The position numbers and the translations under genes are program-made. This document shows, piece after piece, positions 16,631-56,157 of a DNA stretch of 64,000 bases. Within the stretch, counting starts at the first letter, position 1. The number at the start of each line of letters is the position of its first letter. The notes under the pieces were generated by a model. That model was not told where the DNA came from. It was given only the letters and a program-made list of their open reading frames with translations, and made no database searches. The DNA is from Burkholderiaceae bacterium (GTDB lineage Bacteria > Pseudomonadota > Gammaproteobacteria > Burkholderiales > Burkholderiaceae_C), in assembly GCA_018780645.1 (NCBI GenBank), contig JADMJJ010000036.1:180521-244520 (forward strand), in the 5' to 3' direction.

Positions 16631-17827
16631 ATGTTCCAGCACGTTGACGCCTACGCAGGCGACCCGATTCTTTCGCTCAACGAGGCCTTCCAGAAGGACC
16701 CGCGCGCCAACAAGATCAATCTGTCGATCGGCATCTACTTCGATGACGAGGGCCGCATCCCGATGCTGGACTCGGTGCGCAAGGCCGAGCTGGCCGTGGT
16801 CGCCGATGCCGGCGCCCGCCCCTATCTGCCGATGGAGGGCGCGGCCAATTTTCGTACCGCAGTGCAGCATCTGCTGTTCGGGCCTGAGCACCCGGCGCTG
16901 AAAGCCGGCCGCATCGTGACCATCCAGGCGGTGGGTTCCAGCGGCGGCCTGAAGGTCGGCGCCGACTTCATCAAGCGCTATTTCCCCGACAGCGCCGTTT
17001 ATGTCAGCGAGCCGACCTGGGACAACCACCGCGCCGTGTTCGAAGGCTCGGGCATCGAAGTCAAGAACTACCCCTATTACGACCCCGCCACCGGTGGCCT
17101 GCGCTTCGACGCCATGCTGGCCGCGCTGCGCGAGATCCCGAAGAAGAGCGTCGTGCTGCTGCACGCCTGCTGCCACAACCCGACCGGTGTCGACCTGACC
17201 CCGGCGCAATGGCAGCAGCTGGTGCCGGTGCTGCGCGAACGCGAGCTGCTGCCCTTCCTGGACCTGGCCTACCAGGGCTATGGCGAGGGCATCGAAGAAG
17301 ACGCCTATGCCGTGCGCCTGCTGGCCGACGAGGGCCTGAGCTTTTTCATCGCCAACTCGTTCTCCAAGAGCATGAGCCTGTACGGCGAGCGCTGCGGCGC
17401 CCTGAGCGTGGTCTGCCCCGATGCGGCCCAGGGCGCGCTGGTGATGGGCCAGCTGAAGGCGGCCATCCGCCGCAACTACTCGAACCCGCCGATGCACGGT
17501 GGCCAACTGGTCGCCCGAGTGCTCAGCACGCCCGAGTTGCGCGCCGCCTGGGAGGCCGAGGTCAAGGGCATGCGCGAACGCATCAAGGCGATGCGCAAGA
17601 GCCTGCACAGCGTCCTGAGCGCCAAGCTGCCCGGCCGCGACTTCGGCTACTTCCTGAGCCAGCACGGCATGTTCAGCTATACCGGCCTGACCCCCGACCA
17701 GGTCGAACGCCTGAAGGCCGAGTTCGGCGTCTACGTGCTGCGCTCGGGCCGCATGTGCGTGGCCGGCCTGAACACGCGCAATGTCGAGGCCGTGGCGGTG
17801 GCGATGGCGGCGGTGCTGGCGGACTGA
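16631..17827 (+). CDS. tyrB: Aromatic amino acid / aspartate aminotransferase
   Basis: MFQHVDAYAGDPILSLNEAFQKDPRANKINLSIGIYFDDEGRIP...HACCHNPTGVDLTP...NSFSKSMSLYGERCGAL. Confidence 0.92.
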   Translation: MFQHVDAYAGDPILSLNEAFQKDPRANKINLSIGIYFDDEGRIPMLDSVRKAELAVVADAGARPYLPMEGAANFRTAVQHLLFGPEHPALKAGRIVTIQAVGSSGGLKVGADFIKRYFPDSAVYVSEPTWDNHRAVFEGSGIEVKNYPYYDPATGGLRFDAMLAALREIPKKSVVLLHACCHNPTGVDLTPAQWQQLVPVLRERELLPFLDLAYQGYGEGIEEDAYAVRLLADEGLSFFIANSFSKSMSLYGERCGALSVVCPDAAQGALVMGQLKAAIRRNYSNPPMHGGQLVARVLSTPELRAAWEAEVKGMRERIKAMRKSLHSVLSAKLPGRDFGYFLSQHGMFSYTGLTPDQVERLKAEFGVYVLRSGRMCVAGLNTRNVEAVAVAMAAVLAD

Positions 17828-19183: not shown

Positions 19184-19400
19184 AGGGCGTAAGGAAGCGG
19201 GCAGGAGACACGACTCACGTTGGCAAGCAAGCGCAATCCGGGTGCATCCAGCGAACAGGAGCTCGCGTAGATGCATCAGGCCACTGCAGGTTTGCAAGAG
19301 TGCCTACCACCGTTCTGTTCAGTCAGTTGGTGCCCGAGCTTGCGGTGTACCGCAAGGTCCGGCACACAAGTCCCTAACCTACCTTTTCAGGAGAACCACC

Positions 19401-19661
19401 ATGTCGAACTTCAAATCCGGCCTCGCCGTTGCCGCCGCCGCCGCTGCCCTGCTGTCCATGGGCACCTTGAGCACCGCCGTGCAGGCCGCCGAGGATGGCG
19501 GCGTCAAGTGCGCCGGCACCAATAGCTGCAAGGGCACCTCCGAGTGCAAGACCGCCAAGAGCGAATGCAAGGGCCACAACAGCTGCAAGGGCCAGGGCTG
19601 GGTCAAGGCCAAGTCCAAGGACGAGTGCACCAAGGCCGGCGGCAAGGTCGTGATGTCCTGA
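19401..19661 (+). CDS. Bufferin-like (BufA2-type) Cys-rich periplasmic metallophore precursor peptide, 86 aa
   Basis: MSNFKSGLAVAAAAAALLSMGTLSTAVQAAEDGGVKCAGTNSCKGTSECKTAKSECKGHNSCKGQGWVKAKSKDECTKAGGKVVMS: Sec signal peptide plus six Cys in C-x-G-x-NSCKG / SECK repeats; RBS-like AGGAG upstream. Confidence 0.78.
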   Translation: MSNFKSGLAVAAAAAALLSMGTLSTAVQAAEDGGVKCAGTNSCKGTSECKTAKSECKGHNSCKGQGWVKAKSKDECTKAGGKVVMS

Positions 19662-19673
19662 CCGGCGCGAGTC

Positions 19674-19713
19674 GCCTCCCGGCCCTGACGCATGCGCCAG
19701 GGTTATGGGAGGC
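19674..19713 (+). terminator. Stem-loop downstream of bufferin-like gene: GCCTCCC-gg-CCCTG..CAGGG-ttat-GGGAGGC
   Basis: Nested inverted repeats directly after the stop codon; no strong U-tract. Confidence 0.6.
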
Positions 19714-53467: not shown

Positions 53468-54364
53468 TCAGAGGGGTTGGTCTCCCGATGTTAGCGCCTG
53501 CCTTACGTTGCCCGAGACGGCGTCCAGCCGCTCGCGGGCGGTGTCCACGTCGATGCCCAGCCGGATCGCCACGATGGCCACCTTGACGTGGAAGTCGCAG
53601 CCCTGCAGCGTTGCCATCGCGACGGCCTCATCGCACCCGGCGGCGCGCATCGTCAGCGCCACGGCGCGCTGCAGCAGCTTGGCGTTGCTGGCCTTCAGGT
53701 CCACCATCAGATTGCCGTAGACCTTGTTCAGCCTGACCATGAGCGCGCTGGAGAAGGTGTTCAGCGCGATCTTCTGCGCCGTGCCGGCCTTCAGCCGCGT
53801 GCTGCCCGAGATGACTTCGCTGCCGGTGTCCAGGGTGATGCCGATATGGGCCTGCCGGGCCACCGGAGCGCCGGTGTTGTTGGCAAAGCCCAGGGTCAGT
53901 GCGCCGGCCCCGCGCGCCGCCTGCAGCGCGCCCAGCACATAGGGGGTGGCGCCCGAGGCGGCGAGCAGCAGCACCACGTCCCGCGGGCCGACCTTGACGG
54001 CCTGCAGGTCGCGCCCGCCCTGCGCGGCGTCGTCCTCGGCGCCCTCGACGGCGACGAACATCGCGCCCGCACCGCCGGCAATCAGGCCCACGGCGCGCTC
54101 ATGGGGCCAGGAGAAGGTCGGGTAGAGCTCCACGCTGTCCAGCACGCCCAGGCGCCCGGAGGTGCCGGCACCGGCATAGATCAGCCGCCCGCCGTCCAGC
54201 ATGCGCGGCAGTGCCGCCTCGACCGCCCGGGCCAGATCGGCTGCGGCGGCGCGCACGGCGTTCACCGCCTCGAACTGGTCGTCCACCAGGGCGCTGACCA
54301 GGTCGGCCACCGGATAGAGGTCCAGGTCCGCATGTTGGCTGCTGGGAGTCTCGGTCTTGAGCAT
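53468..54364 (-). CDS. murQ: N-acetylmuramic acid 6-phosphate etherase
   Basis: [28 protein letters not shown]...[16 protein letters not shown]...[51 protein letters not shown]. Confidence 0.95.
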
Positions 54365-54559
54365 GGAATCCTTGGCTGGCTGGCGGGCGCCCGGAGCGGT
54401 ATGGGGCCAGAATGCCTGCACTCTAGGGCCAGGCGTCCGGTCTTGCCAATGAATGCCGGGCTTGGGTCCATAACTCCAGGTGATCCACCGGGCTGTTGTA
54501 AGGAATGTCACTTCCGGCGCGACTGGCATCCAGCACACCATCCGGCACGTACCTGCACC

Positions 54560-55384
54560 ATGAGCAATTCGATCAGCGGCTTCGGCCTGGGCCTGCGCAC
54601 CGAGCACTACGCCGACTTTGTGGCCGGGCCGCAGCCGGTGGACTGGCTGGAAATCATCTCCGAGAACTATCTGGTGCCCGGCGGCAAGCCCTTGCACTTC
54701 CTCGATCGCATCCGCGCCAACTACCCGATGGTCATGCACGGCGTTTCGCTGTCGATCGGCAGCAGCGACGCGCTGGACATGGGCTATCTGCGCCAGCTCA
54801 AAGGCCTGATCGCCCGCGTGCAGCCGGCCTGGGTTTCCGACCACCTCTGCTGGACCGGCGTCGATCACCACAATCTGCATGATCTGCTGCCCATGCCCTA
54901 CACCGAGGCCGCGCTGCGCCATCTGGTCGACCGGGTGCAGCGTGTGCAGGACTTTCTGGGCCGGCGCCTGGTGCTCGAAAACGTCTCCAGCTATGTGACA
55001 TTTGCCGCGGACGAGATGAGCGAATGGCAGTTCATTGCCGAGCTGCTGCGGCGTGCCGACTGCCAGCTGCTGCTGGACGTCAACAATGTGTACGTCAGCA
55101 GCGTCAACCATTGCTTCGACGCCCAAGCCTACATCGCCGCCCTCCCGCCCGAGCGGGTGGTGCAGATCCACCTGGCCGGCCATGAGGACCATGGCGAGTA
55201 CCTGATCGACACCCACGACCACCCGGTGTGCGAGGCGGTCTGGCGGCTTTACGACTACACGGTGGCGCGGATGGGCCTGAAGCCGACCATGATCGAGCGC
55301 GATGACCATATCCCGCCTCTGCCCGAGCTTTTGGCGGAGCTGGCCGAGGCACGGCGCCGGCAAGAACTGGCGGTGCCGGCATGA
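54560..55384 (+). CDS. DUF692 / multinuclear non-haem iron oxidative (MNIO) RiPP-modifying enzyme (BufB-like)
   Basis: [100 protein letters not shown]...[10 protein letters not shown]...[19 protein letters not shown]...IHLAGH: DUF692/MbnB-like metal-ligand motifs. Confidence 0.92.
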
Positions 55385-56157
55385 ATCCGCACCTGCTTCA
55401 ACAGCAGCAGGCCTTGAGCCTTTGGGTGCGCGAGCCAGGCACGGCAGCGCCGGCCCTGCTCAAACCCCAGGGCCGGCCCGAGATCTATCAGAACGCCTAC
55501 CGGGCCCGGCTGATTGCCGCGCTGGGCGACAACTACACGGTGCTGCAGCGGGCCATGGGCGATGAGGGCTTCGAGGCCCTGGCCCTGGCCTATATCGCCG
55601 CCCAGCCATCGAGGCAGGCCTCGATACGCTGGTTCGGCGATGGCCTGGCCGGTTTCATGGCCGAGCACGAAGACCTGGTGCCGCATCCGGCCCTGGTGGA
55701 CTTCGCCCGCATGGACTGGGCCCTGCGCGGCGCCTTCGACGCGGCCGACGCTGAGGTCCTTGGCCTGCAGGATCTGAGCCGGTTGGCCCCGGACGAATGG
55801 CCGACGCTGCGCTTCAAGCTGCATCCCAGCGTGCAGCGCATCGCCCTGGCCTGGGCAATCGCACCGGCCTGGCATGTGTTGCGCGACTTCGACCCTGAGG
55901 CCGGTGAAGACGCGCCCGAGATGCCCGAGCCCGAAACCTTGGTCCACACGATGCTGGTCTGGCGCCAGGGCCTGGAGACGCGTTGGCGCTCGCTCGACCC
56001 GATCGAGGCCGAGCAGCTGCAGGCGCTGGCCGAGGGGCAGGACTTCGCCGCATTGGGTGCGAGCCTGGCCGAACAGCTGGGTGATGAGGGGCGCGCCGCT
56101 CAGGCGGTGGCCACCCTGCTCGCTCAGTGGATGGGGGATGGGCTGTTGCGTCACTGA
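55381..56157 (+). CDS. DUF2063 (putative DNA-binding domain annotation) MNIO partner protein (BufC-like)
   Basis: [81 protein letters not shown] overlap with the DUF692 gene. Confidence 0.9.

What the first reader, a model, noticed from the sequence alone, without database searches (positions are those of the whole stretch)
19401..19713. Standalone bufferin-like (BufA2-type) Cys-rich precursor with its own terminator-like stem-loop
Seen: an 86-aa ORF with a Sec signal peptide (cleavage plausibly after ...TAVQAA), then six Cys in a repeat-like core: KCAGTNSCKGTSECKTAKSECKGHNSCKGQGW...DEC. It is followed directly by a nested hairpin (19674-19713). Known: bufferins are periplasmic Cys-rich RiPP metallophores whose thiols are modified by a DUF692 MNIO enzyme and DUF2063 partner, normally encoded beside the precursor. 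Here neither neighbour (LysE exporter, DadA-like) is such an enzyme, so the precursor is monocistronic. Inference: it is either an orphan substrate served in trans or a short-coded diverged metallophore.
Basis: partly seen in the sequence, partly recalled or inferred. Interest (0 to 1): 0.72.

Follow-up and report, generated by a model that had tools for sequence, protein, structure and literature searches.

The report
Copper-binding peptide split from its enzymes
A small secreted cysteine-rich copper-binding peptide gene, normally the first gene of a three-gene operon, sits in this Roseateles-group genus about 35,000 bases away from the two genes for the enzymes that should modify it, and the two separated parts still share a promoter-like sequence found nowhere else in the genome.

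Summary
Window 19401-19661 encodes a canonical six-Cys BufA2 (Buf2) bufferin precursor (NCBIfam NF050166, 87.7 bits against a cut-off of 60), with no modifying enzyme beside it.

The partner enzymes are almost certainly the MNIO/DUF2063 pair at 54560-56157, which has no precursor beside it. In 42 same-family genomes outside this genus, every BufA2 is encoded directly upstream of bufB. Only in this genus (3 of 3 genomes, including Roseateles toxinivorans) are they 30-35 kb apart.

The halves behave as one unit. Both carry the ECF-type promoter sequence GTAAGGA-N15-CGACT, which occurs exactly twice in each of the three genomes: before bufA2 and before bufB. Both show purifying selection and the same phylogenetic affinity, although they sit at two sites (beside a tyrB-like gene; beside murQ) that each house the intact operon in other genera.

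Stand-alone Buf2 precursors, and the idea of modification in trans, are already published. The matched split, its conservation and the shared promoter are the new part. The 3' hairpin is real but lacks a U-tract and is absent in one relative. Modification, copper binding and sigma-factor control are inferred.

The parts
19189..19215 (+). ECF-type promoter-like element GTAAGGA-N15-CGACT, 185 nt upstream of bufA2
   Evidence: one of exactly two copies per genome in all three genus members; 0 of 100 window shuffles give two. Promoter activity is inferred.
19216..19400 (+). Presumed 5' leader of bufA2; the first ~110 nt are 90-94% identical in the genus and were not found outside it
   Evidence: Transcription is inferred.
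19401..19661 (+). bufA2, Buf2 bufferin precursor, 86 aa; Sec-type signal about residues 1-30, six Cys at residues 37-76
19674..19713 (+). Nested GC-rich hairpin after bufA2, no U-tract; kept in R. toxinivorans, absent in G001
54498..54524 (+). Second copy of the same promoter-like element GTAAGGA-N15-CGACT, 35 nt upstream of bufB
54560..55384 (+). bufB, MNIO-family bufferin maturase, 274 aa
   Evidence: NF050167 397 bits, cut-off 310; PF05114 380 bits; BufA2-associated MNIO clade; aligns to solved DUF692 structure 3bww.
55381..56157 (+). bufC, DUF2063-domain partner protein, 258 aa, start overlaps the bufB stop by 4 nt
   Evidence: PF09836 66 bits, gathering 27.
16631..17827 (+). Landmark, not part of the system: tyrB-like aminotransferase gene, which lies just upstream of the intact bufA2BC operon in Rhizobacter, Aquabacterium, Inhella and others
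53468..54364 (-). Landmark, not part of the system: murQ-like gene, divergent from bufB; in Roseateles/Paucibacter/Pelomonas relatives the intact bufA2BC operon occupies the bufB position

Best explanation
This is a bufferin-2 (Buf2) system in which the usual bufA2-bufB-bufC operon has been broken into two transcription units, bufA2 at 19.4 kb and bufBC at 54.6 kb, held together functionally by a shared ECF-type promoter sequence. Proposed working: under metal (probably copper) stress an ECF sigma factor, most likely the one beside the genome's Buf1 cluster on contig C23, switches on both units. BufC presents the BufA2 precursor to the MNIO BufB in the cytoplasm. BufB converts core cysteines to thiooxazoles. 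The Sec pathway exports the peptide, and in the periplasm it sequesters copper. Shown here: family identity, the genus-conserved split, the shared promoter sequence, purifying selection and matched phylogenetic affinity. Inferred: promoter activity and which sigma factor reads it, modification in trans, export and copper binding. The likely origin is a relocated or duplicated operon of Rhizobacter-like type followed by complementary loss (bufBC lost at the tyrB site, bufA2 lost at the murQ site). The exact events are not resolved.
For: Precursor and enzymes pass curated cut-offs or Pfam gathering scores. There is one BufA2 per genome in the genus. G001 and G002 have two MNIOs and one BufA1 that sits beside its own MNIO, leaving BufA2 and the orphan bufBC to pair by elimination. 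In 42 of 42 other family genomes with a BufA2 over cut-off it lies directly upstream of bufB (30-241 bp, or in tandem up to 1.05 kb), against 30.3-34.9 kb on the same strand in the three genus members. GTAAGGA-N15-CGACT occurs exactly twice in each of the three whole genomes, at bufA2 and bufB. A relaxed form lies upstream of 18 of 44 intact operons, against about 0.001 expected per region. The BufB tree puts the window MNIO among BufA2-associated MNIOs, away from both Buf1-type MNIOs of the same genome. BufBC (99/96; AU p = 0.021 against joining the murQ clade) and BufA2 (murQ clade 93/87 without it) both fall outside the murQ-site clade. dN/dS against G001 is 0.11-0.12 for bufB and 0.14-0.15 for bufA2.
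Against: No expression, modification or binding data. The promoter pattern was drawn from these loci before being counted, and the three genomes are close relatives. The BufA2 tree has only 85 columns and weak deep support; the AU p-value is modest and the group was named after the tree was seen. Two further MNIOs in this genome (one in G001 and G002) could in principle act on BufA2, and BufBC could act on another, unrecognised substrate.
Confidence: 0.82

Rival explanations
1. BufA2 is modified by one of the Buf1-type MNIO/DUF2063 pairs elsewhere in the genome (contig C23 or C2), and the 54.6-kb pair serves another substrate.
For: Two other MNIO loci exist in this genome, and the C23 Buf1 cluster has the same kind of promoter element. 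Tandem precursors suggest that some MNIOs take more than one substrate (PMC12452194).
Against: Both Buf1-type MNIOs have their own adjacent DUF2282 precursor and fall outside the BufA2-associated MNIO clade. The C2 locus is missing in G001 and G002. No Cys-rich small ORF lies near bufBC that could be its own substrate.
Confidence: 0.08
2. BufA2 is no longer modified in this genus; it works as an unmodified periplasmic thiol peptide, and bufBC is a leftover or has been recruited to something else.
For: The published survey notes that precursors away from MNIO genes might not be modified (PMC12452194). Separation from the enzymes would be a first step of decay.
Against: bufB and bufA2 both show purifying selection, both persist in all three genus genomes, all six Cys are kept, and both keep the same promoter element.
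Confidence: 0.06
3. The split is an assembly artefact or a chance resemblance, and a complete bufA2BC operon exists unseen.
For: The window's genome is in 128 contigs.
Against: The same split is seen in three genomes, one of them a single contig (G001), with conserved flanking genes.
Confidence: 0.01

Closest known systems
Buf2 (BufA2, Buf_6/12Cys) bufferin gene clusters, bufABC (PMC12452194; NCBIfam NF050166 and NF050167)
   Same: Six-Cys precursor with Sec-type signal, MNIO maturase and DUF2063 partner, each of the family's kind.
   Different: The operon is split into two units 30-35 kb apart, each with its own promoter-like element. The survey reports stand-alone Buf2 precursors and suggests modification from another locus, but the text I read describes no matched orphan bufBC.
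Caulobacter sigma-F / NrsF regulon of Buf1 operons CC2907-2905 and CC3254-3257 (PMC3511200)
   Same: Bufferin operons at unlinked loci under one ECF promoter; GTAACC-N16-CGAA there, GTAAGG-N16-CGAC here, same spacing.
   Different: There each operon is complete and of the Buf1 type. Here the promoter joins the two halves of one Buf2 system, and the candidate sigma factor is a TIGR02943-type ECF with a zf-HC2 anti-sigma gene, not sigma-F/NrsF.
Stand-alone second BufA2 of Rhizobacter sp. SG703 (L155)
   Same: A bufA2 with its own GTAAGG-type element and no bufB beside it.
   Different: That genome also keeps an intact bufA2BC operon (L161); the genus studied here does not.

Membership tests
BufA2/Buf2 bufferin precursor | Profile match over curated cut-off | tested here: met
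   NF050166 87.7 bits, cut-off 60.
BufA2/Buf2 bufferin precursor | Six conserved Cys in the core | tested here: met
   C37, C43, C49, C56, C62, C76, invariant in nine relatives.
BufA2/Buf2 bufferin precursor | N-terminal Sec signal peptide | tested here: inconclusive
   Basic start, hydrophobic Ala-rich stretch and AVQA-type cleavage site by eye; no signal-peptide predictor was available.
BufA2/Buf2 bufferin precursor | bufA directly upstream of MNIO and DUF2063 genes (usual, not universal) | tested here: not met
   bufBC is 34.9 kb away. The published family definition admits stand-alone precursors (PMC12452194), so this does not exclude membership.
BufA2/Buf2 bufferin precursor | Cys converted to thiooxazole; periplasmic copper binding; growth benefit under copper | not testable with these tools
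   Needs mass spectrometry and growth assays.
BufB MNIO maturase (54560-55384) | Profile match over curated cut-off and placement with BufA2-associated MNIOs | tested here: met
   NF050167 397 bits, cut-off 310; tree.
PME-type 1 / DUF2063 partner (55381-56157) | DUF2063 domain | tested here: met
   PF09836 66.2 bits, gathering 27.2; it does not reach the HvfC model cut-off (35 against 142).
ECF (sigma-F-like) promoter | GTAA-type -35 and CGA-type -10 elements at N16 spacing upstream of the start codon | tested here: met
   GTAAGG-N16-CGAC at both loci.
ECF (sigma-F-like) promoter | Transcription start and dependence on an ECF sigma factor | not testable with these tools
   Needs 5' RACE and a sigma-factor deletion.

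The most novel reading that the evidence does not exclude
A genus-conserved split RiPP pathway: the precursor and its modifying enzymes were separated by complementary loss between two operon homes, and are held together as a two-locus regulon by a promoter sequence that occurs nowhere else in the genome, probably read by the sigma factor of a different (Buf1) bufferin cluster.
Probability: 0.5. Interest if true: 0.55.

Novelty: new variant of a known kind. Interest (0 to 1): 0.45.

Why it matters
Mining of modified peptides usually looks for precursors beside their enzymes, and the bufferin survey could only suggest that stand-alone precursors are modified from elsewhere. Here there is one orphan precursor and one orphan enzyme pair per genome, with matching descent and a private shared promoter element, so trans modification becomes a simple test in a cultured species (Roseateles toxinivorans DSM 16998). 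It also points to ECF control of Buf2 systems, whose clusters were described as lacking sigma-factor genes.

Tried and rejected
Terminator role of the hairpin: no T-run, weak z-score, absent in G001. Rfam for the leader and hairpin: only two sub-threshold hits, htlv_FSE and HOTTIP_2, taken as chance. Simple reciprocal loss from an ancient native murQ-site operon: not favoured, because the genus's BufBC does not group with the murQ-site clade. A hidden precursor beside bufBC: none found. The pattern GTAAGGA-N15-CGAC without the final T gives 6 genome hits against 4 reversed-pattern controls, so it is not specific by itself; three of the six lie before bufA2, bufB and bufA1. Of the other three, one overlaps a GST-like start codon, one lies before a response-regulator-like gene and one was not assigned to a gene start; none was pursued. 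Solved-structure search of BufA2: nothing relevant; BufC: only a weak hit at E 0.67. No structure prediction was run, as it would not decide between the explanations.

Full report
Observation. The 86-aa ORF at 19401-19661 is real and has six Cys at positions 37, 43, 49, 56, 62 and 76 after a signal-peptide-like N-terminus. It passes the curated cut-off of NCBIfam NF050166, BufA2 bufferin-type metallophore (87.7 against 60 bits). Its neighbours are a LysE-type exporter and a D-amino-acid-dehydrogenase-like protein. The hairpin at 19674-19713 is present, but it has no T-run, folds only modestly better than shuffles (z -1.6), and is absent in one of two genus relatives.

Enzymes. A MNIO gene (54560-55384; NF050167 397 bits, cut-off 310) and a DUF2063 gene (55381-56157; PF09836 66 bits) lie 35 kb downstream on the same strand, divergent from a murQ-like gene. 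No Cys-rich small ORF lies within about 2 kb of them. Two other MNIO loci in the genome each have a DUF2282 (Buf1) precursor; one of them (C23) also has an ECF sigma factor and a zf-HC2 anti-sigma gene.

The split is a genus trait. Among 251 family genomes, 45 have a BufA2 over cut-off, and all 45 have a BufB. In the 42 outside the genus the precursor is 30-241 bp upstream of bufB, or in a tandem up to 1.05 kb away. In the three genus members the gap is 34.9, 34.8 and 30.3 kb on the same strand. One of these is Roseateles toxinivorans DSM 16998, identified because its 117750-bp contig and position match L154. Among 80 named relatives most are adjacent. Of those without bufB, L154 is the same genus, L155 is a second copy in Rhizobacter sp. 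SG703 with its own GTAAGG-type site, and the others are MAG contigs, some with little room to the right.

Pairing by elimination. G001 and G002 have two MNIOs, one Buf1 precursor beside its own MNIO, and one BufA2. That leaves BufA2 and the orphan bufBC as the only unmatched pieces found.

Shared promoter. Aligning the regions upstream of bufA2 and bufB in the three genomes shows the same element. GTAAGGA-N15-CGACT occurs exactly twice in the window, against 0.00 expected and none of 100 shuffles with two, and exactly twice in each of the three whole genomes, always at bufA2 and bufB (reversed-pattern control 1 per genome). A relaxed form lies upstream of 18 of 44 intact bufA2 operons, against about 0.0013 expected per region, and a match lies upstream of bufA1 beside the ECF gene in all three genus genomes and in G098. 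The layout GTAAGG-N16-CGAC parallels the Caulobacter sigma-F promoter GTAACC-N16-CGAA before Buf1 operons, where two starts were mapped by 5' RACE (PMC3511200). The pattern was drawn from these loci before it was counted and the three genomes are related, so the count is strong but not independent evidence; activity is untested.

Two homes. In Rhizobacter, Aquabacterium, Inhella and others the intact operon sits just after the tyrB-like aminotransferase. In Roseateles, Paucibacter and Pelomonas relatives it sits divergent from murQ or the neighbouring MFS gene. In this genus bufA2 is at the tyrB site and bufBC at the murQ site. By its tyrB and MFS genes the chromosome is of the murQ-type group (tyrB 79-82% against 68-74% identity; MFS mostly confined to that group). 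In several murQ-type genomes tyrB lies about 22-48 kb from the operon on the same strand (coordinates); in others it is more than 100 kb away.

Trees. BufB of the genus lies within the BufA2-associated MNIOs and away from the Buf1-type MNIOs of the same genome. BufB+BufC places it outside the murQ-site clade (99/96), and forcing it in costs 14.3 log units (AU p = 0.021; the group was named after seeing the tree). BufA2 is too short for a firm tree, but the murQ-site clade (93/87) again excludes the genus. So both halves have the same affinity although they sit at different sites. A relocated or duplicated operon of Rhizobacter-like type with complementary loss would explain this; other routes (gene conversion, two-step movement) are not excluded.

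Selection. dN/dS against G001 is 0.14-0.15 for bufA2 (0.12 for the mature part) and 0.11-0.12 for bufB, and 0.17 for bufB between G000 and G002. The bufA2 comparison rests on few changes (14.5 synonymous and 8.5 non-synonymous between G000 and G001).

Mechanism. From established knowledge of the family (PMC12452194, PMC13097082), BufB with BufC oxidises Cys of the precursor to thiooxazoles before Sec export, and the product holds copper in the periplasm. Here the same steps would run with the substrate made from a separate transcript. Co-expression would be secured by the shared ECF-type promoter rather than by co-transcription. All steps after transcription are inference.

Known and new. PMC12452194 already reports sizeable proportions of stand-alone Buf2 precursors and suggests modification from another locus, and states that sigma-factor genes are found in Buf1 but not Buf2 clusters. 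What is added here is a matched split with a private shared promoter element and congruent descent. I read parts of the main text of that survey, not its supplement, so a similar case could be listed there.

Noticed in passing
window 19330-19365: A 36-nt palindrome (GTGCCCGAGCTTGCGGTGTACCGCAAGGTCCGGCAC) lies in the bufA2 leader of this genome but not of its two genus relatives; pieces of it recur elsewhere in the three genus genomes, like a REP-type repeat.
   Followed up: partly
window 19216-19320: The first ~110 nt of the bufA2 leader are 90-94% identical in the genus and contain a TGCATC/GATGCA stem, with no match in 248 other family genomes searched. Function unknown.
   Followed up: partly
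L155 6117-6473: Rhizobacter sp. SG703 has a second, stand-alone BufA2 with a GTAAGG-type site, just after the 3' end of what looks like an RND efflux pump gene (by eye), besides an intact operon (L161).
   Followed up: partly
L110 (G000 contig C2): The window's genome has an extra Buf1 cluster (DUF2282, MNIO, partner and a DoxX-like gene by eye) that was not found in G001 and G002.
   Followed up: no
L213, L220, L223, L230: Alphaproteobacterial relatives carry three or four tandem bufA2 genes before a single bufB.
   Followed up: no
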